Notes under the pieces: model-generated | Seen by the model: only the letters and a program-made list of their open reading frames with translations | Told to the model about the DNA's origin: nothing | Databases searched by the model: none | Part shown: piece by piece, positions 1 to 16,526 of the stretch | Numbering within the stretch: the stretch's first letter is position 1 | How the letters are laid out: each line of letters opens with the position of its first letter | Assembly: GCA_000447185.1 (NCBI GenBank) | Contig: KE647045.1 | Span: forward strand, 8,021 to 24,546 | DNA length: 16,526 bases | Source: Vairimorpha apis BRL 01 | Lineage: Eukaryota; Microsporidia; Nosematidae | Direction: 5' to 3' | Position numbers and translations under genes: made by a program

Positions 1-179
1 TTTTAGAGAAAATTAACTTATTTTTAGATATATTTTTGTTTTCATTAATTAAAATATAAAATTAGTTTTTTTATATGATGACTGTGAAATTCCAAAATTC
101 TGTTTTTTTATTAGTATATTATTTATAAAAAACATTGTCATATAAAACAATTAAAAATGATAAAATTACATTAAGAAAA

Positions 180-848
180 TTAAATTAATTTATTATCCAT
201 TATAATTTTTATTGTAGTTTGGATATTACAATAATAAATAAAAGCTGAAAGATTTTTAGTTTTAATATCTTTCAAAAATTTAAGTATTAAATAATTTTTA
301 GATACAAAAAAACTTTTTTGAGATAAAAAAGTTATAAGAAATCCAAAAAAATATAATAAATTGATTCTTACAATGTCACTATTTCTCGAGTTTATATAAT
401 CATTGTAATTTTGTATCAATTCAAATTTAAATTCAGTTTTATCATTTAAAATTAAGCTTGACTTAGACTTCAAACATTTAAACATATATATAATTCTTAA
501 GTCTAAAAATTCTACAGTTAGTTTACATTTTTTTAAATAAAAAAGCTTGATGTAGATTACAAACCTGCACAATTTGTTTAAAATTGTTGTTTTATTATAC
601 AATATATTTAATAAACAGTGATATAAAATAATTTTTTCTACTATATCATCTAGTTTTTTGATAAGCGATATTAGATATAAAATTACTTGTTGTTCACACT
701 CGTTATGTATATAATATTTTATTTTATTGACCAAAATATTTGAAAGAACAGATATAAATCTCAAATCATTAAAGCTTTTTGAATAAGTAAATCGAGATGA
801 ATTAAAAATATAAAATTTCGTCAATTTTAACATTATAGCAGATTCCAT
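180..848 (-). CDS. Orphan protein, or C-terminal continuation of the 802-1611 gene
   Basis: Open frame on the minus strand with no recognised domain. It stays open up to about 911, but the codon there is GTG; the first in-frame ATG is at 848, giving about 222 residues beginning MESAIMLKLTK. That start lies inside the neighbouring gene ending at 802, in another frame, and has no CCC motif before it. The product is rich in Ile, Leu, Lys, Tyr and Asn, has scattered Cys, and shows no clear signal peptide. I infer two options: a separate overlapping gene, or the second half of one protein of about 476 residues. In the second case the frame would change near an A5 run at 804-808 that holds one base too many for continuity; dropping one base gives an uninterrupted reading from 1611 to 180. 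Function unknown. Confidence 0.45.
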   Translation of the reverse strand: MESAIMLKLTKFYIFNSSRFTYSKSFNDLRFISVLSNILVNKIKYYIHNECEQQVILYLISLIKKLDDIVEKIILYHCLLNILYNKTTILNKLCRFVIYIKLFYLKKCKLTVEFLDLRIIYMFKCLKSKSSLILNDKTEFKFELIQNYNDYINSRNSDIVRINLLYFFGFLITFLSQKSFFVSKNYLILKFLKDIKTKNLSAFIYYCNIQTTIKIIMDNKLI

Positions 849-1611
849 GGTATTTTGGAATATTATTACAATTTCCAATGCATAAACATAACTTTTGAAA
901 ACATTTATCACAATAACAATAGTTATTAAGTATAAATTTTTGTTCTTTTTGATTTTTTAATTGTTTATCTGTATCTAAAATAAAGATCACTGGATTTCTC
1001 AAAATTATATCTAAACAAGATAAATTACGCTCCATAATTTGTTTTAGGTCAAAAGGAGAAGTTTTATGCATACAGTTTCTCTTATAATTTAAAATTCGCA
1101 AATATTTACAATTTTTTATTAAACCAATTTGTTTATAAAATACTTTTGCATTAGAAACAAAATGTGATTTTGAAGTATTAAATTTTTTCATTTTATTTGG
1201 AAACTGTATATTTTTGTCGATTTTATCATATACATAAATATATTTTGAAATAAATTGCTTTAGTTCAAATATTATTTTGTTTTTCAAATTAATATTAATA
1301 TTTTCATAATATTCTCTTATTAAATTATCACAAACTTGAGATTCTTCAGGATATGAAAAATTACACATATCGATTAGGTTATATAAATTATTTTCGCATT
1401 TAAAATTCTTGTATCTATCATTTTGATTATCTAAATAATCAAACACATCGGTCATTTTATTGTCTGAATCATATAAGTAAAAATCTTTAATAGGTTCTTG
1501 ACAGAATATATTTGCATTTGCTATATTTATGCCAAAATCATATAATCTTTCCGTATCAGAACGATTGTCATCAATATAAGAAGAAAATAAAACTTTATAA
1601 AATAAAAACAT
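802..1611 (-). CDS. Orphan protein with Cys-rich C-terminal cluster
   Basis: A 269-residue open frame starting at a true ATG (1611). I do not recognise the family. The N-terminal two thirds are polar and Asn/Asp/Lys-rich. The C-terminal end has a dense Cys cluster: Cys at about residues 232, 234, 237, 242, 244, 248 and 258, with His at 255. This could bind zinc or form disulfides, and its regular spacing suggests real coding sequence rather than chance. No convincing signal peptide is visible (the start MFLFYKVLF is hydrophobic but short). It is transcribed divergently from the secreted-protein gene at 1843, about 230 bp away. No CCC motif lies directly before the ATG. It may continue in another frame into 848-180. 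Confidence that it is coding is moderate to good; function unknown. Confidence 0.6.
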   Translation of the reverse strand: MFLFYKVLFSSYIDDNRSDTERLYDFGINIANANIFCQEPIKDFYLYDSDNKMTDVFDYLDNQNDRYKNFKCENNLYNLIDMCNFSYPEESQVCDNLIREYYENININLKNKIIFELKQFISKYIYVYDKIDKNIQFPNKMKKFNTSKSHFVSNAKVFYKQIGLIKNCKYLRILNYKRNCMHKTSPFDLKQIMERNLSCLDIILRNPVIFILDTDKQLKNQKEQKFILNNYCYCDKCFQKLCLCIGNCNNIPKYHGICYNVKIDEILYF

Positions 1612-1835
1612 ACTTTGTTTATTTAAAAATATTTAATAATTAATTTATAATTTTGATGACGTTATTATTGAATTTATTTTAAACAACAAATATATATATA
1701 TGATAAAAATAGTCATAATATTTGTAAAATTAAATTTATTAAAACATGATTTTTTTTATTTTAATTTAATTTGAAATGTCAAATAGGTCTTTGTTTAGTA
1801 AACAAAATTTAGATATTTAAAGCAATTCGAACAAT

Positions 1836-1845
1836 CCCTATTATG
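1836..1845 (+). promoter_or_regulatory. CCC start motif before the 1843 gene
   Basis: AATCCCTATTATG places CCC at 1836-1838, four bases before the ATG at 1843. C-rich motifs this close to the start codon are a known microsporidian transcription/start signal. It supports 1843 rather than the later in-frame ATG at 1963 as the gene start. Confidence 0.6.
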
Positions 1846-2447
1846 AAAATACTATTTTTCACAATAATTTGTGTTCACGGATTTACAAGAATATATACTA
1901 CAAAAGAAAAAGTGATGGGATAAAAGATGGATGGAACGGTAAAGATTTAAGAATTTCTACAAATGAGGGAATGGTGTGTTTTAAAGATGCAACTGTTACA
2001 AAAATTGAACAGTAATGGTAATAATACAGTTTACACATTACAAGATGGCTCTAAATTAACACTTAGTGGTAATGAATATAATTTAGCTTTAAATGACTAT
2101 AAAGGAAGCGATTTTGACATTCAAAATCCACAATATCTACATAATTATGGAGATGAAGTTCATACATGTTTAAAAAATGATCAAAATATGACAATTACAG
2201 GAGTTAAAGATGTTACAACAGATGGAAAAGGTATGTATCAAATTAAAGGTGGTGAATCAAATACTGCATCATCTAATAGTTCTAAAAATGTTGGTTCTTC
2301 GTCTAAATCAGATTATGACAAAAACAAAACCGGTAAATCTAAATCTAAAAAAAAAAGAGTAGTTCAAAAATTAATTTTGCAGATTCATTGATTGGATATG
2401 ATTTTCTTACTACTTTATCATTGAGTTATATCTCATGTTGTTTTTAA
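1843..2447 (+). CDS. Secreted Ser/Lys-rich orphan protein, frame-broken
   Basis: Composite gene of about 201 codons. The start at ATG 1843 has a CCC motif before it and a signal-peptide-like opening (MKILFFTIICVHGF). That frame stops at 1921, but the -1 frame entered at the A5 run 1907-1911 is clean for about 34 codons (SDGIKDGWNGKDLRIS and onward) until a stop at 2013. The original frame is then open from there to 2391 (TVYTLQDGSKLTLSGNEY and onward), which needs one base fewer somewhere near 2000-2012. At the A10 run 2347-2356 the -1 frame continues with a Ser-rich tail ending ISYISCCF-like (true end LSYISCCF) at the stop 2445-2447. The middle looks like repeated beta-strands; the C-terminal third is Ser/Lys/Asn-rich. 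Probably exported, perhaps to the spore surface or host, but this is inference. It is convergent with the gene at 2545. Three shifts mean miscounted bases or a decaying gene. The family is not recognised. Confidence 0.55.
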
Positions 2448-2544
2448 GAAAAAAACTGTAAATAAACATTTTACATTAATATTCTAGTAAATATTTAATA
2501 ATATAATTCAAAAAAAAACATAAAAACAAACAAAAACTAAAATT

Positions 2545-3207
2545 TTATTGAGTAGTAATTATTAAATCACACAATTTAACAAAAACGTATTCAACTAAAG
2601 TATTCTTTTCATCTTTCTTTTCGGTAGCACGTTTAAATATTTCTTTCTTCTTTTCAAGTTTCTTATTAATTTCATCCAAATATTTCTTATTGTCTTTTAC
2701 AAATTCTTTTTGTTTTGATGAAAAATCTTTAGAATCATCAAATATAATAACTTCTTTATAAGTATTAAAACCGCTTTCAAAATCTTTGTTATTTTTAAAC
2801 ATTGCTTTAATTTCATTAAAAACCTTTGAAATTTTTTCGTTTGAAATAGTTGCTTTACTTGGTGCAGTATCTTCTCCTTCACCTGAATTACTATTTTTCT
2901 GACTATCTCCTTGGTCATTATTTGAAATTTTGATATCATTCAAATATTTTTCATCAACATTAACAGTTGCATATAAAATATTAAGTCTAGTCTCCAAATC
3001 ATTTTTGCCAGTATTTATTTTTTTACTCGTTGACATAATAAAATCAATTGTATCTTTTGTATTTAACTCGCCAATTTTATCATTGGTTATTTCAGATACT
3101 TTTTTATCTTCATTAAATGGCCATACTTTCATATTATATAAAACAAACCCTCCTAATGTAATTAATGCTATTAATCCAATGACGGTTATCAAAGTTTTTT
3201 GAGACAT
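2545..3207 (-). CDS. Signal-anchored, Lys/Glu-rich orphan protein
   Basis: An intact 220-residue frame. Residues 5-25 (TLITVIGLIALITLGGFVLY) form one strong hydrophobic segment right at the N-terminus, so it is either an uncleaved signal anchor or a signal peptide; the rest is soluble. Residues about 96-118 are a low-complexity Asn/Ser/Gly/Glu linker, and residues about 162-200 are dense in Lys and Glu with heptad-like spacing, suggesting a coiled coil. The start is well supported: the upstream sequence reads ACCCCTATATG. The gene is tail-to-tail with the secreted gene ending at 2447, leaving about 97 bp. I do not recognise the family. Its features fit a lineage-specific exported or membrane-tethered protein of a microsporidian, but no function can be assigned. 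Confidence 0.75.
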   Translation of the reverse strand: MSQKTLITVIGLIALITLGGFVLYNMKVWPFNEDKKVSEITNDKIGELNTKDTIDFIMSTSKKINTGKNDLETRLNILYATVNVDEKYLNDIKISNNDQGDSQKNSNSGEGEDTAPSKATISNEKISKVFNEIKAMFKNNKDFESGFNTYKEVIIFDDSKDFSSKQKEFVKDNKKYLDEINKKLEKKKEIFKRATEKKDEKNTLVEYVFVKLCDLIITTQ

Positions 3208-3215
3208 ATAGGGGT
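3205..3215 (-). promoter_or_regulatory. CCCC start motif before the 2545-3207 gene
   Basis: On the minus strand the sequence is GGTACCCCTATATG, with the C-run (3211-3214) three bases from the ATG. It matches the C-rich microsporidian start-proximal motif. Confidence 0.65.
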
Positions 3216-6200
3216 ACCATAAAAAAATTTATTTATAGTTTTTAGAAATTAAATTATTGAAAAAAAATTTGTTAAAATTTAAATTTCATTTTTCTTTTTC
3301 GTTTTTATTTATTATTTTACAAAAAAATTAATGATATCTAAATTTTTAATTAAAATAAATAAACAATAAAATTTTAATTATTTAACTAATTATAAATTTA
3401 ACTAGAATAATTTTTTATGGTGTTTTATTGCTTATTAAAGTTGTCAAGTAATATTTAAATTTAAATTTAAAAAATATAAATACCTGGAATTGTTTGTAAT
3501 AAACAAAATCTTAATTTTTAAAATTTATCTAATTCTAAATTTAAATTTATTACCATAATATTTTAAATGCATTTTAATCAAATAATGATTTAAAATAAAT
3601 TTTTTATTTTTTTAAAAATTTAAAAATTGCGTAAAAGAAATTTTTAAATTATATTATCTTAAAAAATAAGAAAATAAAAATATATATTATTTGTTTATTA
3701 AACTGTAAACAATGATTATTTGATTGAAAAATTAATTTGCTATTTTTATAAAAAATATAAAAAGATATCAAATTATTTAAAAAATAAGTTTTTTAAAAAT
3801 TATAAATATGTTTAATTTCTTACAATTTCATTAAATTTTAAAATTATTTATAAAAATAATTGTAAAAAATAAACAACGTTATTTTAATTATTTAAACTAG
3901 TTTATTATAAATTCAAAACGATTTTTACGACATAAAAATTTGACCTAATTTATGTTTAAACAATTTTAAATTAAAAAACACAAAATACACAATTTTGATA
4001 ATAACTACCAATTTTTAAATTATTTTATTTATGTAATAAATTTCATAAATTTTTAAACTTTTTTTTTATACAAAAAAAATTGCTTATGAATATATATTTA
4101 AAAATGTTTTTATATAATTTTCTAAAGACTATCATATATAATAATTCATAAAAATTCTAGTGCTTATAAAATTTTAAAAAAAATATCGTAAAAACAATAT
4201 TTATTTAAAATATATGTATAATATTTATAAAATGTTTCTAACATATAAAATTTTTTATTATAATTATTCAACTTTAACATATTATTATTATGTTAATTGT
4301 GATGTTTATATAATTACATAAGTCAGAAAATATTTCAAATACAAAATTAACGTTTTTATTAAGCATCATGATAAAACAACAAAATAGTTTCATTAGTTTA
4401 TCTGACAATATTTATTTAGATTATTAAATCTTAATATTATTTACAATGTTAGTACAATTTTATTTTTTGAATTCATTATAATTTAAATATTTATAATTTT
4501 TAAGTAAAAATGATCATCATTTGTTTAAAAATATAGAATTACATGTTATAGTAAATTAAATGAAAAACATAAAATATATAAAAAAATCTCTTAAATTTAA
4601 TACCATTACAAATATTATCAAGTTTTTATAATATAACATAAAATTTGTTCAACTAGATTTAAAAAAAATTTATATCTTATGTATCAAATATATTTGAATG
4701 TTAAAATTAAAATTATTTATATATCAAGTAAAATAAATGTATTAAATTAAACAATAAATTATTAGAATAACCCATAATTTAAATGTTATTTAAAAGTAAA
4801 CTACATTTATATAAATTTTATTAATATTTAAATATCATTAAATTATTTAAATTTTTAATATGTATGTTGCATAAATTTGATTAAATTTTTATTTTAAAAA
4901 ATGTAACAATCTGTTAATATTTTTTTTAATGTCATAACAATTATTAATTAATGTTTATAAAGCAATTTTTTAAATATTTATTTATTTTTAATTATTTAAA
5001 TTACTAATATATACTTTTTTAAATATTATTTTATATGTAATATTTTTATTTTAAAAAATCTTCAAAACCAAGATGATTTACCCATTATTATTTCAATCAC
5101 TATAGTATTAATATATTCCAAATGTATAAAAAAGGCAAAATTATTTTTTCATATTTTTACTTTAACTTTAAATATTATATACCAAGATTTTTAACATTTT
5201 AAAATAAATTAATATTTTTTATTGAAGATATTTATTATTAAATAAAATCTATTTATATTTATTTGTAAATAATTTCATATTCATGTAAATTTTAATTAAC
5301 TAGTTCTATTCTAAATTTTACTTTATATATAAAATTTATAAATACCTGTGTAATTTGACTTTGTGAAAGTTAAATTTTTATGCTGTATATATAGATAAAC
5401 AATGTTTTACTATTTATTCTTGCTATATGTTTCAAAAACTATAATATTTATCTATGTTATTACAAGTGAGATTATTTATTATATTTTTTAAAAAAATTTA
5501 TTTTTTGTTATATTTAATATTTCATTTTTTTTAAGCCATTTAGAATGAAAACAAAAATCTGTAAAATGAATAATATTTAAATTATGTAAATTCAATATTT
5601 GTAAATAAAAAATTGTTAATAGTTTATTTTTAAAATAAAAAAAATTTCTTAATTATTTGAATAATTTAAACAAATTATGATATCTATCATAAAAATGCTA
5701 AAATATAATTTATTTTTATAAAAAAAAGGTTTTTTGATTATAACAATAAACACATATTTTAGCATTATTTGTATAAAAAATAAATGATTTTCAATTTATA
5801 GCATTTCTTATTTTTTTAAATATTTTTTTAAAAAATTAAAATAATTTAATTGTGGAAAATTTTAGAAATAATGATTTTTTATTAGCTGTTTTGAAATTTT
5901 ACGTTTAATAAGAATTTAATATCAAAAAAAAATTTAAATAAATTTAAAAATTATCTAAGAAAAAAAATAAATATTTTGTGTTAATTTAGGTTTAAGAGGT
6001 AAAATAATGTAATTAAAAAAATGTAATTACTTTTAAATATTATGTATTGTTATATATTATTTGTTTTTTTATTATAAAATTAATGTGAAAAACTAAATAT
6101 ATATATAAAGCATTTTATTATAATGAATAATAGAAAATGTCCAAATTGAAGTTTATAAAAAAAATATTAACATATAAAATCTCGGTAATAAAAAAATTTA

Positions 6201-9431: not shown

Positions 9432-10100
9432 ATGTATTATGATTTAGATATAAAAAGTAATTTTAAGAAAAAAGATATAAATTTTTTAATAGACTCAGAA
9501 TATGCTGGATATTGTATTTCAAAGACAATAAGACAAAGTGATATAAAAAAGTTTATAAGTTTAGATTTACCTTTTGACTTGCCAAATAAACACGTATTAA
9601 AAAAAATAACTGTAGATATTGATACAAATACATATAATATTAAACATCTTAAAGAAAAATGTGATGTATTATGTATTAAATTAAAAAATTTAGAGAGTCC
9701 TGTTGATGAAAATATGTGTGATCTTGTTAATATAGATTTTACTTCTCAAATAAAAATAAAAAATATTAATCCAAATGTTTTTTATGAGATTTCGATTTCA
9801 AATAATTTAAATAACAAAAAAGATAGACTCATGTGGTTTTATAATACAAAAATGTTTATAAATTATACTAAAGGGAAAAATGTTGTTATTAGTAGCGGTG
9901 CTGAAAATGCTTCTGAGCTTAAATCATACATAGATTTTATGAAATTATTTGATTTTTTAGATATTAAAGAAAAAATAGGACAAAGAATATTAAAAAATTC
10001 ATTAAAATTACTGCATAAATGTGCAGAAAATAGATATTTTGTTCATAATTGTATTTTTAACGATATAGATGAAGGTGTACTAAAAAAGAATTTTTACTAA
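9432..10100 (+). CDS. RPP30: RNase P/MRP protein subunit Rpp30 (Rpp1)
   Basis: An intact 222-residue protein, recognisable as the Rpp30/Rpp1 subunit of RNase P and RNase MRP, which process tRNA 5' ends and pre-rRNA in the nucleus. Family landmarks I can see are an N-terminal YYDLDI (usual form x-x-D-L-N-V), the mid-protein strand NVFYEISIS at about 115-123 (family: G-V-x-F-E-I), and KGKNVVISSGAENASELKS at about 147-165, matching the family's G-K-x-I-I-x-S-S-G-A block. After it comes an Arg/Lys/Leu-rich helix (QRILKNSLKLLHKCAENR). The fold should be a degenerate PHP/TIM barrel. It is shorter than the human protein (about 268 residues), as expected in a reduced eukaryote. The start ATG directly follows TAAATCC. 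The gene holds an intact A8 run, useful as a contrast with the broken genes. Confidence 0.85.
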   Translation: MYYDLDIKSNFKKKDINFLIDSEYAGYCISKTIRQSDIKKFISLDLPFDLPNKHVLKKITVDIDTNTYNIKHLKEKCDVLCIKLKNLESPVDENMCDLVNIDFTSQIKIKNINPNVFYEISISNNLNNKKDRLMWFYNTKMFINYTKGKNVVISSGAENASELKSYIDFMKLFDFLDIKEKIGQRILKNSLKLLHKCAENRYFVHNCIFNDIDEGVLKKNFY

Positions 10101-10839: not shown

Positions 10840-12842
10840 TTAATTTATAAACATTACTGTCTTATTTTCATAATAAATTATATCTTGTGCCCCAAGTTCT
10901 TCTAAAACAACATTTACGTCTTCTTTGGAAATTCCTAAAGTTTCATCAATACGACTAAAAATATCATCCAAACTCAAATTTTTCAATGATTCATTTTCCA
11001 GTCTAATTTCATACAATAAATTAATAACATAATCTTTTTTAGCATTTTCATTTTCGACAATTTCAAGTTCTTTATTTATTTCAAAATCTTGTATATCTTC
11101 TGTACTTTTTACACGTTTTGTAGGTTTTACAACTTGTCTTAAAAGTGTAGATTCTAGTAGTAAAATAACTTCTTCAATATCTACACTTTCAACCACAGAC
11201 GAACACCTTAATTTAGCATGAGCCGTTGATAGTCTTATTATTGTTTCTAACATTCTAGGCGTAATAGAAACAATTTGTTCTTTTTTATTTTTAAGTTGTC
11301 TTAATTTTGTATATTCTTTTATAATTAATTGACTAGCATCTCTTGATAAAACAGGTTTACTATTTTTACAGCTGACAATAAATTCTTTAAATCCACCAAT
11401 TTTAGTTTCTTCTTCTAAATTGCAAAACTGGAATGCATTTTTACTACATGATCAGATATTAAAGTATCAGTACTAGTATCATTTTTATCGAGAACAACAA
11501 AAATAAGATCAAACCTAGTCATAATAGATTCGGGAAGTTTAATATTTTCACTTGGTTTTCTATCTTCTTTATATATTCCAAATATAGGGTTTGCTGCAGC
11601 TAAAACTGAACATCGAGCATTTAAAGTTGTATGAATTCCCGCTTTACTTATTGTAACTGTTTGTTGTTCCATCACTTCATGTATAGCAACTCTATCTAAT
11701 TCATTCATCTTATCAAACTCATCGATACAAACAATTCCTCTATCTGCTAAAACCATAGCACCTGCCTCTAATCTTTTATCACCAGTATCTTTATCTATAA
11801 CGACAGCAGCAGTTAAACCTACACCACTTGAACCTTTTCCTGTCGTTGCCACAGAAATTTCATTAAAATTATATATAAATCTTAATAATTGTGATTTTGC
11901 CGTACTAGGATCACCTATCAAGAGAATATTTATATCTCCTCTTATTTTACTACCATTTTTCATAATAACTTCATTACCTCCCACAAGCATTAAAGCTAGA
12001 GCTTTTTTAATATTATCATGACCCCAGATGCTTGGAGCTATAAACTTATGAACATTATTAATATTAAAATCTCCTTTAATAAATTCTTCTGTTTTCCGTT
12101 TTTTAAATTGTTCAATATTATTTGCTATCAAAATATTTTTAAACTTATTTGGAAATTCTGTACTTGCAAAACATAAACTTTTATAAATTCCATAAACTTT
12201 TACTCTATCGCCTGGTTTTATTGTATCTACTAAATCATGACTTAATATGCATTCTACACTTCTAGGTAATTGTCCACATGGTGCATTCTCCGGCATTTCT
12301 TGCAAATTTATTGTTTGATAATCAATATACTCACTCATACCATATTCTGTACTTAAAATGCTCCCATCCGTGTCTCTGGTAGGATAAACAGTATTGGTAA
12401 TAGGTAATTTTGTTATCATAGTACTATCTCTATATTCTTTCTGCACAAAAGATGACTTATAATTATTAAAATGTACGCTTTTAATTATTTTAGGTCTACA
12501 TATAGAACAGCTTGTAATTATTCCTTCAACACAAATTAGTTTTCCTAAATATAATGAACTTAAAGTTCTTGGAGATAGTTTATATTCCCCAAAAGATCCA
12601 TTTATTCCAAATTTAACATTTTTTTGTGTAACTTCTTTTATTAAATCTTCAATAAGTGGTATAATATTAGTAGAATCATTAATAATTTCTTTAGCCAATG
12701 ATAGATTAAATAATCTCATCTCATCGATATTAAAAATAACACGATTTTTTAATGTTTTAATAATTTTGTCTGTATATATTTCATCGTTTTTAGTTTTAAA
12801 ATCTGTCAAAAAAGATCTAAAAATATCCAATGTTTCATTCAT
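10840..12842 (-). CDS. MCM3: DNA replication licensing helicase subunit MCM3, one frameshift
   Basis: MCM3 subunit of the MCM2-7 replicative helicase (nucleus). The first 475 codons (12842-11415) are intact. The N-domain has MCM3-type EGIITSCSICRPKIIKSVHF at about 106-125, lacking a Cys4 zinc finger as is usual for MCM3, and the MCM3-diagnostic QEMPENAPCGQLPRSVE at about 181-197. The AAA+ core has Walker A GDPSTAKS (310-317), GSSGVGLTAAV, Walker B VCIDEFDKM (371-379), sensor NAR..LAAANP and Arg finger TRFDLIF (442-448). After SDHVVKMH the frame stops at 11415, but the -1 frame continues at once with the expected lid helices (FKEFIVSCKNSKPVLS, then SITPRMLETIIRLSTAHAKL) and ends in a winged-helix-like tail (IIYYENKTVMFIN) at 10840. 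One base is missing, most simply in the T4 run of the coding strand (genomic A4 at 11424-11427), which keeps the conserved Met-His. Full reading about 667 codons. Confidence 0.93.
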
Positions 12843-12856
12843 TTTTTTAAAGGGTT
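12840..12856 (-). promoter_or_regulatory. CCC start motif before MCM3
   Basis: The minus strand reads GAACCCTTTAAAAAAATG, with CCC at 12852-12854, nine bases before the ATG. It is the same arrangement as at 3211 and 16168 and supports the chosen MCM3 start. Confidence 0.65.
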
Positions 12857-13252
12857 CAAAATAGTTTTTTAAAAAATTCTATAAAAATATCATTTTAAAA
12901 CGTTTTTTTTATTTTTCGTTTTAGAAATTTTTTTAAAATAAAAAAGAAAACTTTTGCTTGATATTTTTTTTAAAAAAAATATTTATTCTTTAATTTTTAA
13001 TTATTACATAATAATATACAATATTACATTAAATAGAAATGTTTATTTAAATTAAACTAAATTATAAAATTTTTTTTTAATATTATTAATATTTTTTTTT
13101 AAGTCAAAATACTAAAACAGATATTTAGATAAATTCAAATTTAAAAAATGTTATCATTATTTATTTAACATTAATTTAAATTTTTAAGTTTCTTGTAAGA
13201 TTATAAAAAAGAAATTTTTATTTAAAATTTAAACATAATTCATTTTAATTCT
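12857..13252. other. AT-rich spacer between MCM3 and the P-type ATPase
   Basis: About 400 bp of T- and A-runs with no open frame or recognisable site. Both neighbours are on the minus strand, so it must hold the ATPase 3' end signal and the MCM3 promoter; neither is identifiable beyond the CCC motif. Confidence 0.5.
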
Positions 13253-15180
13253 TTATTTAAAATAAATTGAATTTAAGATTATTATTATGTTAGGTACATA
13301 CATAAGAAATCCATTTTTAAAAAATTTTGGGTTTATAAATAATATTATTAAATTATATATCATAGACACTAAATAATTTAAATTTTTTTAAAATTAGTAA
13401 TTCTTATGATATCTAAAATACATAAAATATTTTTTAAGTCATTATTAACACAGAAATCGGCCTTTAAATTATTATTCATGCTAATACTCAGATTGCTCCG
13501 TTGAAATGCGGGAATATCATTAAAACCATCTCCAATCATACAATTCATTTCTTGTGTATTATTAATAACATTGGCTTTATCTTCTGATGTAATATTATAA
13601 TAATAATCTGTAATATTTAAATAATGACAAACTTTAACAACATTTTTTTTGAATCTCCTGATAATAAAATAACTTTATATTTTGACTTTAAAATATTAAT
13701 AAAATTTTTGGCATCTTTTTTAACATATGAAGTAATATGAAAAAAACCGGCAATTTTACTTTCTACACTAACGTAAATGCAATTATTATTGATATTATAG
13801 TTGTGGGTTATGTTTTTGTAATTGCAAAACGAATATTTTCCAATACGTATTTCGTTATTTTTATATTTACATCTTATACCACATGTTGAAATATATTCAT
13901 CTTGTTCAACAATCAAATTATAATGTTTTGATGCTTTAAGAACTTCTAAGATTCCTTTTGAATAAATATTTTGATATTTTAATTCTAAAAATATTACAAT
14001 TTTTTTAATTTTAGATTCAAGAAAAAATTTAGTAATTTTAATCGAGTCCGTTAAAGTACCAGTTTTATCTATAAAAATAGTTTTAATTCTTTTGATAACA
14101 TCATAATTTGAAACGATAATGTCATTATATCTTATTTCATGTTTAATTTTAAATTTTAACAATATATCAGAAATTAAAAAAACACAAGGGCAAATTCTCA
14201 TATTTAATAAAATTATATTATTTATGATATCTGGCAAATTTGATGATTTAAAAAAATATATCATTAATCCTAATAAATTCATAATTGCAATAAAAATTTT
14301 AAATTTTGATTTTTTTTCAGGTTTAGAAAAATCAGAAAAATTTGTAATATTTGTAACCTCAATTAAAGCTTTTCCCATTTTAATTATTGTTCCATCTTTA
14401 ATTATTTCATTTTTAAATTTTTTTTTATATTTTCTTCTCCTGTTAAAAAAGATTCGTCTACGAAACATTCTTTGGATATTAATTTTCCATTAAAATTGAC
14501 TTTTTCATTTTGTTTTAAATATATCAAATCTCCTTTTAATAAAGTGTTTTCATATCTATAAAAAATATCTTCTTTATTTTTATCATGTTTATTAAATTTA
14601 AACATTTTAATTAATTTTAATTTTTTGAATTAAAATTATAAATTTTGTTTAAATTTCCATGTATTTTTCTAAATTTAAAATTTTCAAATACAAAAAATGT
14701 ATTTAATTTAGATAATTTAAGAATTAATTTATTTAAAAGTTCATTAAATGAGACAAATAGTAATATATCAAATGCATTATTTAAATAATCTTGTTTAGTG
14801 TTTATAATATATAAAATAATATTCAAATATGAAAGAATCATATAATAATTTATTTTGTTGTGTAAATAATAACTTATTTGAATGTAAAGCATAAAACAAA
14901 TATTTATAAATATATTTTGTTTTATAATTTTTTTAAAAATAATTAATACAATTATTATAAAATTTTTTTTTATAATATTATCTTTATCAAATTTAAACCC
15001 TTTTTCTTTTAAAATGAGTAAAATTTTACTTAAATTACGTTTATATTCAATATAAATTTCTTTTGTCAATATATTTATTCGATATGAATGTATTTCAGAT
15101 ATGGAGCTCAAAGTTTTTGATAATTTAGTTAAACATAAAATACAAGATATACTTGTTATTTTTATTATTTTAGATTTCAT
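13253..15180 (-). CDS. Heavy-metal (Cu-type) P1B ATPase, cut by four poly-A frameshifts
   Basis: Metal-exporting P1B ATPase, about 643 codons if the five pieces are read in order. Piece 1 (15180-14617): HMA domain with CILC at residues 13-16, then four membrane helices (about 73-158). Piece 2: actuator domain, GDLIYLKQNEKV and VDESFLTGEE. Piece 3: membrane helix with CPC (14184-14192, RICPCVFLIS), the metal-site hallmark of Cu(I)/Ag(I) pumps, then phosphorylation motif DKTGTLT (14049-14069) and a short nucleotide domain ending LLSGDSKK. Piece 4: hinge motif MIGDGFNDIPAF (GDGFND at 13516-13533). Piece 5: last membrane pair, with YN (LNYLVSMIYN) and a final ILNSIYFK, stop at 13253-13255. Each junction is a poly-A run of the coding strand lacking one base: T6 14621-14626, T9 14418-14426, T8 13643-13650, T7 13383-13389 (genomic). 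No other stop occurs. The usual His-Pro of the nucleotide domain is not visible. No CCC motif precedes the ATG. Confidence 0.85.
13643..13650 (-). other. Slippery poly-A junction A8 in the P1B ATPase
   Basis: Coding strand TCA AAA AAA ATG, directly after LLSGDSKK. The incoming frame again offers A AAA AAA. A -1 step continues as NVVKVCHYLNI and on to the MIGDGFND hinge motif. Confidence 0.5.
14418..14426 (-). other. Slippery poly-A junction A9 in the P1B ATPase
   Basis: Coding strand ATA AAA AAA AAT, at the actuator domain just after TGEE. In the incoming frame this contains the heptamer A AAA AAA, a classic -1 ribosomal slip site and also a site for RNA-polymerase slippage. The frame after a -1 step continues the domain. 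Confidence 0.5.
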
Positions 15181-15514
15181 GCAAAAAAAAATTGTATTAA
15201 TTTATTTAAAAATGCATAAAAATTAAAACTCATAAATATTAAATTCTATAAAATTTTAAAACTTTTTATATCTTGTAAAAATAAAAAATTTTAAAAAAAC
15301 TAGGTATATTTTTTTAATAAAATTAAGATGAATTGCATAATTTTTATATTTATACCTTTAAAAAAATTTTAAAATTGTAAATTGTCTTATTATAATTTTT
15401 TATTAATATTAAATGCTTTTAATATATTTTTTAAAATATTTAATAGAAAATTAATAGTATAAAATTAACAAATTTATTTTTATAAAATATTATATCAAAA
15501 AATTTTATTTTTAG
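15181..15514. other. AT-rich spacer between P1B ATPase and LRR gene
   Basis: About 330 bp with no open frame, CCC motif or other structure that I can see. It must hold the ATPase promoter, so that promoter is not of the CCC type seen at the neighbouring genes. Confidence 0.5.
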
Positions 15515-16165
15515 TTAATGTTTATTTATATAAACTTCTTTAATTTTATTATTATTTTTAAAAAAATTTAAAATGTTATTAATATTTTTTACTGATAAAT
15601 ATAAAGTTTCTAGATTAATAAGATTTTCTATTGATTTTGGTATACATTGCAAATTTCCATTTAAAATACATAAATTTTTTAAATTTTTAAGATCTCCAAT
15701 ATTATCTGGTAATCTTATTAAGCAGCTATCATTTACATACAAATTTTGTAAATTTTTACATCCAGTAAATGTAGGTGGAAATTCTGTGATTTTTGATTTT
15801 TTGATATATAATGTTTTTAAATTTATTAAATATCCAACAGAATCTGGCAAAATAATTATATTTGTATCTTCAAGCCACAAAACAGTAAGATTGCTTAATT
15901 TCCCTATATTAGTTGACAAAATATCAAGTTCTGTTTTAAAGAAATATAATTGCTTTAGATTCAATTGATTTAAGATTTGTTCAGGAAATGTAAACATTTT
16001 GAGATCAGAAAAACTTAAAATTTCAAAATTGTTACAATTTTTAATTTTATTGTTAAAATCAAAACAATCTTCTTTTTTTAAATGTAATTCGATATGATTT
16101 TTAATTAGTTGAACATAAATTGCAAAAAAATATATAATATTATATTTAAAAATAAATATTTTCAT
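15515..16165 (-). CDS. Leucine-rich repeat protein, probably secreted
   Basis: An intact 216-residue protein. The N-terminus MKIFIFKYNIIYFFAIYVQL is a basic then hydrophobic stretch of signal-peptide type. From about residue 47 to the end it is made of LRR units with a strict period of 23 residues: LxxLxx strands begin at about 47, 70, 93, 116, 139, 162, 185 and 208, with the intervening pattern LPDxIGxLxNL (as in RLPDNIGDLKNLKNLC). This is the plant/Ras-suppressor-like 23-mer class, a protein-binding solenoid. Microsporidia are known to carry families of short secreted LRR proteins thought to meet host proteins; this role here is inference. The start is supported by ACCCTAATG. There is no C-terminal cap or membrane segment, so it may be trimmed. 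Confidence 0.85.
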   Translation of the reverse strand: MKIFIFKYNIIYFFAIYVQLIKNHIELHLKKEDCFDFNNKIKNCNNFEILSFSDLKMFTFPEQILNQLNLKQLYFFKTELDILSTNIGKLSNLTVLWLEDTNIIILPDSVGYLINLKTLYIKKSKITEFPPTFTGCKNLQNLYVNDSCLIRLPDNIGDLKNLKNLCILNGNLQCIPKSIENLINLETLYLSVKNINNILNFFKNNNKIKEVYINKH

Positions 16166-16171
16166 TAGGGT
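16163..16171 (-). promoter_or_regulatory. CCC start motif before the LRR gene
   Basis: The minus strand reads TTACCCTAATG, with CCC (16168-16170) two bases before the ATG. It is the tightest of the four such motifs in this window. Confidence 0.65.
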
Positions 16172-16204
16172 AACATAAAAAAAACTTTAAAATCTTAAAT
16201 TAAA

Positions 16205-16236
16205 AAACCTTTAATTAAAAAAATCAATTAAGGTTT
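16205..16236. repeat. Small inverted repeat
   Basis: AAACCTTTAATT (16205-16216) and AATTAAGGTTT (16226-16236) are complementary but for one bulged T, with a 9-base loop. It lies between the LRR start and the end of a possible upstream gene tail. Function unknown. Confidence 0.5.
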
Positions 16237-16286
16237 AATAAATAAAATTTTTAAATGTATAAAATTAAAAAATATTAGTTTTTATT

Positions 16287-16470
16287 TTACATATAAATTT
16301 TAATCAATATCATTTTTTTATTATTTCCATTAATTATAAAAAATATATTATTTTCAATTTTTTTTTGAGTATTTAATTTATTTGAATAAACTTTAAATTT
16401 TTTTTGCGTTTGTAGATTTTAATTCTATTAAATTTGTATTAAAATAATAATATTTTATTTTAAAAAATTA
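16287..16470 (-). pseudogene. Possible C-terminal tail of a gene entering from the right
   Basis: On the minus strand a frame ending at TAA 16287-16289 reads KVYSNKLNTQKKIENN, then FFIINGNNKKMILIKIYM, which is coding-like in its mixed composition. Before it, a second frame reads YYYFNTNLIELKSTNAKK and joins it if the T8 run at 16398-16405 holds one base too many. Upstream of about 16470 a stop closes that frame. It may be the broken 3' end of another minus-strand gene like those before it, or chance. No family is recognised. Confidence 0.25.
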
Positions 16471-16526
16471 ATCTAAATTTTTTTATATATCAACTATTAA
16501 AAAAAATCATAAAGTTACATTAAAAA

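What the first reader, a model, noticed from the sequence alone, without database searches (positions are those of the whole stretch)
13253..15180. Complete P1B ATPase cut four times, always one base short at a poly-A run
Seen: all motifs from CxxC, TGEE, CPC, DKTGTLT and GDGFND to the final membrane pair occur in order, in five pieces. The four junctions are A6, A9, A8 and A7 on the coding strand; each needs exactly one more base, and the sum restores a length divisible by three (1928+4 bases). No nonsense codon lies elsewhere. A decaying pseudogene would be expected to collect stops and shifts of both signs, also outside homopolymers. Inferred options: homopolymer undercalling in the assembly, a gene lost very recently, or real expression through slippage at A-runs, as described for some AT-rich endosymbionts.
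Basis: partly seen in the sequence, partly recalled or inferred. Interest (0 to 1): 0.85.

Follow-up and report, generated by a model that had tools for sequence, protein, structure and literature searches.

The report
Sequencing errors mimic a shattered gene
A metal-pump gene of the honey-bee parasite Vairimorpha (Nosema) apis looks cut four times in the public genome, but the cuts are most likely run-length errors of an old sequencing method, and the same kind of cut turns up in essential genes of that assembly.

Summary
On the minus strand, 15180 to 13253, a P1B-type (heavy-metal) ATPase lies in five open pieces; each step is one base short, no stop lies inside a piece, and every overlap touches an A-run. 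The window is from Vairimorpha (Nosema) apis BRL 01, assembled from 454 reads at about 15X. The contig's right end was assembled again as the left end of contig C128; the versions differ at 16 indels, 13 of them single-letter A/T. An MCM helicase gene is cut here and open there; the ATPase is cut further there, by six indels where the window is open. In 189 kb, 35 of 45 other frame breaks are one base short. Four of 7 MCM and 5 of 7 chaperonin loci are broken. A relative reads unbroken across junction 1. Against: both versions share all four cuts, and four exceeds the survey's expectation, so recent real loss is not excluded. Slippage rescue is unlikely.

The parts
14620..15180 (-). Piece 1: N-terminal metal-binding (HMA-like, CILC) region and first hydrophobic spans; 187 aa from ATG
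   Evidence: HMA E 0.0035, below cut-off; 131/187 identical to P0003
14405..14629 (-). Piece 2: start of the actuator domain with TGEE; 75 codons open
   Evidence: (E1-E2_ATPase 32.6 bits, cut-off 28.1)
13620..14489 (-). Piece 3: rest of actuator domain, CPC membrane span, DKTGTLT, nucleotide-binding part; 290 codons open
   Evidence: Hydrolase 32.9 bits; TIGR01525 E 1.8e-20
13381..13674 (-). Piece 4: GDGFND part of the phosphorylation domain; 98 codons open
   Evidence: TIGR01494 E 1.1e-11, TIGR01525 E 1.3e-10
13256..13387 (-). Piece 5: C-terminal hydrophobic stretch; 44 codons open
   Evidence: no Pfam match
14620..14629 (-). Junction 1: overlap of frames 1 and 2 (10 bases, A-run); open in the relative P0003
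14405..14489 (-). Junction 2: overlap of frames 2 and 3 (85 bases, longest run A9)
13620..13674 (-). Junction 3: overlap of frames 3 and 4 (55 bases, longest run A8)
13381..13387 (-). Junction 4: overlap of frames 4 and 5 (7 bases, reaching into an A-run)
10940..16526 (.). Stretch assembled twice: right end of contig C23 (this window) = left end of contig C128 (bases 1-5575), 99.36% identical, 16 indels in the pairwise alignment
10840..12842 (-). MCM-family helicase gene, cut in this window (475 and 137 aa pieces) but one open frame of 626 aa in C128, where C128's own end and a further indel lie near its 3' end; internal control for assembly error

Best explanation
The four cuts are sequencing and assembly errors. 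The gene is a complete, slightly degenerate P1B metal ATPase (most likely copper or a similar soft metal; inferred) of the microsporidian Vairimorpha (Nosema) apis BRL 01. The genome was read by 454 pyrosequencing at about 15X, a chemistry that measures run length by light intensity and tends to miscall long A/T runs (general knowledge). This gene is AT-rich (17% GC) with 18 A/T runs of six or more, so it collected four consensus undercalls. Shown: the breaks, their sign, the platform, the disagreement between two assemblies of the same locus, and the same signature in the sampled genome. Inferred: that each of these four particular breaks is an error, since both versions share them.
For: (1) Identity and platform: P0001, named 'cation transporting p-type atpase [Vairimorpha apis BRL 01]', comes from a 22,325-base contig, the length of C128, and maps to C128 in three pieces at 97.9 to 100%. 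The N. apis paper reports 454 Titanium, Celera/CABOG and 15X for non-repetitive contigs (PMC3726280). (2) Same locus assembled twice: window 10940-16526 = C128:1-5575 at 99.36%; 16 indels, 12 of them of one base, 13 of 16 of a single letter, all 13 A or T. (3) The MCM gene is cut in the window and open for 626 aa in C128. Six indels separate the two versions inside the ATPase, none a multiple of three; the window is open at all six. (4) Survey of 189,151 bases: 45 other breaks between overlapping open frames, 35 one base short against 10 of the other sign (p 2.5e-4); 22 against 2 where a run of 6 or more lies in the overlap; longest run in the one-base-short overlaps 6.14 on average against 4.53 in same-length random windows. 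(5) Essential genes: 4 of 7 MCM loci and 5 of 7 chaperonin (CCT) loci broken; the 10 overlapping-frame breaks inside them are all one base short (pieces on both sides checked against Pfam for three of the loci). The 12 of these loci compared do not match each other as DNA. (6) The relative P0003 (70% identical over piece 1) runs on without a break into the piece-2 sequence.
Against: Both versions of the locus share all four cuts although they differ at 16 other indels; systematic undercalling can do that, but so can real deletions. The gene has more breaks than its run content predicts from the survey: 0.76 expected, 4 seen, P 0.008 (the expectation is low because breaks flanked by under 60 codons are missed, one of the four here among them). 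No rise of breaks towards contig starts was seen. Junction 1 lies at a run of only six, short for a classic 454 error, though some breaks in essential genes have a longest run of only 3 to 5 in the overlap. Of the 13 single-letter indels between the versions, 6 lie in runs of 5 or less, so run length is not the whole story. Ten of the 45 other breaks have the opposite sign. No intact full-length relative was found; junctions 2 to 4 have no outside check.
Confidence: 0.9

Rival explanations
1. A real, very recent pseudogene: one or more of the four deletions exist in the genome of strain BRL 01 and the transporter has been lost.
For: All four cuts appear in both assembled versions. Breaks exceed the survey expectation. 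Metal transporters are dispensable more often than MCM or CCT genes (general knowledge).
Against: No stop codon and no change of the other sign in about 640 codons of the window's version; gene-like codon usage in all pieces; the same signature in essential genes; the window is open at six places where C128 is cut.
Confidence: 0.07
2. Real short runs rescued by slippage of RNA polymerase or the ribosome at A-runs, as reported for Blochmannia and Buchnera.
For: One sign only, at A-runs, otherwise preserved coding sequence: the pattern described for Blochmannia genes with frameshifts in homopolymer tracts (PMC3017870, abstract and passages).
Against: Four slips in one message would be needed; the MCM gene's cut is absent in C128; the reported bacterial cases are few per genome (8 genes in B. 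vafer), against 35 one-base-short breaks in 189 kb here, five of them with a longest run of 4 or less in the overlap; the relative P0003 is open at junction 1.
Confidence: 0.02
3. Short introns: stretches between pieces are spliced out, as the public gene model supposes.
For: The deposited N. apis protein P0001 skips two short stretches, and the genome paper reports 612 of 2,771 genes as intron-interrupted (PMC3726280 passage).
Against: P0001 is made of three blocks on C128 with skips of about 28 and 29 bases (worked out from the block ends and shared residues); the first skip is not needed in the window, which is open there, and the second drops the LSGD stretch of piece 3 (that it is a conserved motif is recalled). 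N. ceranae was reported with six intron-bearing genes (PMC2685015 passages). At all four junctions the open frames overlap.
Confidence: 0.01

Closest known systems
454 homopolymer frameshifts in AT-rich microsporidian assemblies (Nosema ceranae, PMC2685015, passages)
   Same: 454 reads and the CABOG assembler; that paper names homopolymer runs as prone to error and joins adjacent ORFs in 58 cases by supposing a one-base frameshift error.
   Different: There the cases were marked with ambiguity letters; in N. apis this locus was deposited with short skipped stretches instead.
P1B-type heavy-metal ATPases (TIGR01525, TIGR01511; PDB 2iye, copper-transporting ATPase)
   Same: Order of HMA-like region, TGE, CPC, DKTGT, GDGxND; best NCBIfam match of piece 3 and of P0001 is TIGR01525, of pieces 2 and 4 the general P-type model TIGR01494 with TIGR01525 second; PDB match of piece 3 is 2iye, E 5e-6.
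   Different: TGEE in place of the usual TGES, HY where HP is usual, HMA below Pfam's cut-off (usual motifs recalled).
Slippage-rescued frameshifts in Blochmannia and Buchnera (PMC3017870 passages; Tamas 2008 seen only in its reference list)
   Same: Indels in A/T runs with otherwise intact coding sequence.
   Different: Bacterial, few genes per genome, that paper treating genes with a single such frameshift as intact; here four sites in one gene, one platform explains the pattern, and no transcript was seen.

Membership tests
P1B heavy-metal ATPase | Phosphorylation motif DKTGT and hinge GDGxND | tested here: met
   Read in pieces 3 and 4; PF00702 32.9 bits over cut-off 26.4 in piece 3
P1B heavy-metal ATPase | Actuator domain with TGE | tested here: met
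   PF00122 32.6 bits, cut-off 28.1, piece 2
P1B heavy-metal ATPase | CPC in the membrane span before the P domain | tested here: met
   Read in piece 3; TIGR01525 match from profile position 175
P1B heavy-metal ATPase | N-terminal HMA domain with CxxC | tested here: inconclusive
   CILC present; HMA 18.1 bits against cut-off 24.8; 20.7 bits in relative P0003
P1B heavy-metal ATPase | Curated whole-protein score of TIGR01525 | tested here: inconclusive
   Pieces 2, 3, 4 score 23.9, 73.4 and 40.8 bits and P0001 91.9, cut-off 346.25; piece 1 no match, piece 5 not scanned against NCBIfam; single pieces cannot be expected to reach it
P1B heavy-metal ATPase | Two C-terminal membrane spans | tested here: inconclusive
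   Piece 5 is hydrophobic to the eye, 44 codons, no Pfam match; no membrane prediction was run
Slippage-rescued gene | Frameshift present in accurate DNA reads | not testable with these tools
   Raw reads (SRA067788 per PMC3726280) not available here
Slippage-rescued gene | Mixed run lengths in RNA | not testable with these tools
   No RNA reads
Slippage-rescued gene | Frameshift kept in related lineages | tested here: not met
   Relative P0003 is open across junction 1; junctions 2 to 4 not covered by any relative found
454 run-length assembly error | Independent assemblies of one locus disagree at runs | tested here: met
   16 indels in 5.6 kb, 13 of a single letter, all A/T, 7 of the 13 in runs of 7 to 10 and 6 in runs of 5 or less
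454 run-length assembly error | Essential genes show the same breaks | tested here: met
   4 of 7 MCM and 5 of 7 CCT loci broken
454 run-length assembly error | Excess of missing over extra bases, at runs | tested here: met
   35 against 10; 22 against 2 with a run of 6 or more in the overlap
454 run-length assembly error | These four sites differ between the two assemblies | tested here: not met
   All four junctions are shared by both versions

The most novel reading that the evidence does not exclude
The runs are really short in the genome, and this microsporidian tolerates one-base losses in A-runs across many genes because its nuclear RNA polymerase or ribosome slips on them often enough to restore full-length protein: a eukaryotic parallel of the Blochmannia cases on a genome-wide scale.
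Probability: 0.02. Interest if true: 0.9.

Novelty: not a real feature. Interest (0 to 1): 0.1.

Why it matters
Mostly as a caution. Gene-loss, pseudogene and intron statements drawn from this reference assembly should be checked against accurate reads first. The paper's 612 intron-interrupted genes (22% of 2,771), next to six intron-bearing genes reported for N. ceranae, may in part be the same artefact; the deposited ATPase model is the one worked example here. The metal ATPase itself, in a microsporidian, is worth a second look once its frame is established.

Tried and rejected
Tried: full-length relatives in the protein database. A piece finds only proteins of 0.55 to 1.75 times its own length, so an intact relative of about 640 aa would be missed by all three searches; the search with piece 4 found nothing. 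Tried: a contig-end effect as the reason for the excess of breaks; rates in 2.5-kb bins from the starts of the 20 sampled contigs were 0.27, 0.46, 0.33 and 0.19 per kb, no trend (contig right ends not sampled). Tried: tRNA and Rfam features in the window, none. Tried: an intact second P1B copy elsewhere in G000; TIGR01525 matches other P-type ATPases and this locus twice, none over the cut-off (5.96 Mb held, of about 8.5 Mb estimated in the paper, some of it withheld). Rejected: short introns (open frames overlap). Not examined: a programmed-frameshift signal beyond the runs, dN/dS, structure, raw reads. One search was superseded: it read stretches of N as open frames; only its overlap lengths and runs inside the window are used, and the survey counts come. 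Left out of the essential-gene count: junctions that lie outside the family matches (one in C152, one beside the MCM frame of C26, two beside that of C153; all four of the one-extra sign and between short frames), and the C152 chaperonin break itself, whose pieces do not overlap.

Full report
What is there. The window is the right-hand 16.5 kb of contig C23 (bases 8021-24546) of a 5.96-Mb, 223-contig genome. A public protein from the same locus, P0001, is named 'cation transporting p-type atpase [Vairimorpha apis BRL 01]' and comes from a contig of 22,325 bases, the length of C128; it maps to C128 in three blocks at 97.9 to 100%. The organism is therefore taken to be the honey-bee microsporidian Vairimorpha (Nosema) apis BRL 01 (taxonomy).

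The observation. On the minus strand five open frames follow one another from 15180 to 13256. All steps have the same sign, one base short. No stop lies in the coding frame of any piece, and codon usage of each is like that of other genes of the sample and unlike the two flanks. Piece 2 matches the actuator domain and piece 3 the HAD domain above Pfam's cut-offs; pieces 2, 3 and 4 match the heavy-metal ATPase profile TIGR01525 in successive stretches of the profile (73-110, 175-415, 415-505), though the general P-type model TIGR01494 scores better for pieces 2 and 4; piece 1 resembles an HMA domain below the cut-off. The junctions are located only to overlaps of 10, 85, 55 and 7 bases, each touching an A-run.

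Platform. The genome paper (PMC3726280: abstract in the outline, sections 6 and 16 whole, passages of sections 5, 7, 13, 14 and 24) reports a 454 Titanium paired-end library, Celera/CABOG assembly, and 15X for non-repetitive contigs. [quoted passage not shown] The N. ceranae genome paper (PMC2685015, passages) calls homopolymer runs prone to sequencing error and joins adjacent ORFs in 58 cases by supposing a one-base error. That 454 chemistry miscalls long runs is general knowledge.

One locus, two assemblies. Window 10940-16526, up to the contig's end, equals C128 bases 1-5575, its beginning: most simply the same place assembled twice and not merged. Identity is 99.36% with 12 mismatches and 20 to 21 gap openings by blastn; a global alignment shows 17 mismatches and 16 indels, 12 of one base, 13 of a single letter, all 13 A or T, seven in runs of 7 to 10 and six in runs of 5 or less. 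The MCM helicase gene is cut in the window (475 and 137 aa) and is one 626-aa frame in C128, which has its own end and another indel near the gene's 3' end. In the ATPase the reverse holds: six indels separate the versions, the window is open at all six, and C128 is cut further. The leucine-rich-repeat gene is 216 aa in the window and 147 in C128. So assembly error of this kind is all but shown in this stretch; two diverged alleles or copies would be the alternative, and would not account for a cut essential gene. Against: the four junctions of the finding are shared by both versions. If the versions share reads, or if undercalling is systematic, this is expected; it is also what real deletions would give.

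The genome. In 189,151 unmasked bases (window, C128 beyond the overlap, and the first 10 kb of 20 contigs, masked stretches left out) there are 223 open segments of 60 codons or more and 48 overlapping changes of frame, 3 of them in the ATPase. Of the other 45, 35 are one base short and 10 of the other sign (two-sided p 2.5e-4); where the overlap holds a run of 6 or more, 22 against 2. The longest run in one-base-short overlaps averages 6.14 against 4.53 in random windows of the same lengths, and 63% against 26% hold a run of 6 or more. Stricter minima of 80 and 100 codons give 23 against 4 and 18 against 2. Essential genes share this. Of 7 MCM loci (C23 and C128 counted as one), 4 are broken, with 5 breaks, all one base short; the pieces on both sides match MCM domains in the three that I checked, C75 in part. 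C26 is cut off by its contig's start. Of 7 chaperonin loci, 5 are broken by the match coordinates; five overlapping-frame breaks in four of them are all one base short, and the fifth locus (C152) has non-overlapping pieces and an unclear break. The 12 MCM and chaperonin loci that I held do not match one another as DNA. Four junctions of the one-extra sign, between short frames outside the family matches (one in C152, one beside C26's MCM frame, two beside C153's), were left out of these counts.

Is four too many? From the per-run rates of the survey the ATPase's runs predict 0.76 breaks; four were seen, P 0.008. The survey misses breaks beside segments shorter than 60 codons (it sees 3 of the 4 here), so 0.76 is low. 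The gene is at 17.3% GC, with 10 A-runs and 8 T-runs of 6 or more, against 27.2% and 6 plus 1 in the MCM stretch. No trend with distance from contig starts was found. The local error rate in this overlap is high, but the excess is not fully explained.

Relatives. P0003, 233 aa from a 2,076-base contig of an unnamed source, is 70% identical over all of piece 1 (131 of 187) and its last 46 residues run on into the piece-2 sequence (27 of 48 aligned columns identical). So junction 1 is open in a relative. P0003 ends inside the piece-2 region, for a reason that I cannot see, and no relative was found for junctions 2 to 4; full-length relatives could not be reached by the pieces.

Mechanism and verdict. 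Most likely the gene is whole, and the four cuts are consensus undercalls of A-runs. Shown: steps, sign, platform, disagreement, sampled-genome pattern. Inferred: that these four, shared by both versions, are errors. Recent real loss has perhaps 7%; slippage rescue 2%. The slippage literature seen is PMC3017870 (abstract and passages), which reports eight genes in B. vafer with run indels; Tamas et al. 2008 was seen only in its reference list.

By-product. P0001, the deposited protein, skips about 28 and 29 bases on C128 (worked out from the block ends); the first skip is needless in the window, the second drops the LSGD stretch of piece 3. The paper's 612 intron-interrupted genes of 2,771 stand against six intron-bearing genes reported in N. 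ceranae. Part of the 612 may be such bridged breaks; I tested one locus only. The searches 'Nosema apis' + 'introns' + 'sequencing errors' (one paper listed) and 'Nosema apis' + 'frameshift' (two listed, one of them seen in passages) showed no paper that says so; only the held open-access library was searched.

Noticed in passing
C128:2444-3343 (locus L009), window 13381-14282: The deposited N. apis protein P0001 bridges frame breaks by skipping about 28 and 29 bases, as if they were introns; the paper's 612 intron-interrupted genes may partly be such artefacts.
   Followed up: partly
window 10940-16526: C23 and C128 dovetail over 5.6 kb and were not merged; the deposited assembly holds this locus twice.
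   Followed up: yes
window 180-1611, minus strand: Two overlapping open frames (243 and 269 aa) in different frames, of the one-extra (or two-missing) sign; perhaps another broken gene, family unknown.
   Followed up: no
window 9432-10100, plus strand: RNase P subunit p30 homologue (PF01876, E 1.6e-18).
   Followed up: no
window 15515-16165, minus strand: Leucine-rich-repeat protein of 216 aa upstream of the ATPase; 147 aa in the C128 version.
   Followed up: no
window 13381-14629, minus strand: The ATPase departs from usual P1B motifs: TGEE in place of TGES, HY in place of HP (usual motifs recalled).
   Followed up: no
G000 C50:25029-26164 and C42:1857-2992: P-type ATPase matches with near-identical scores and the same spacing on two contigs, perhaps another locus assembled twice.
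   Followed up: no
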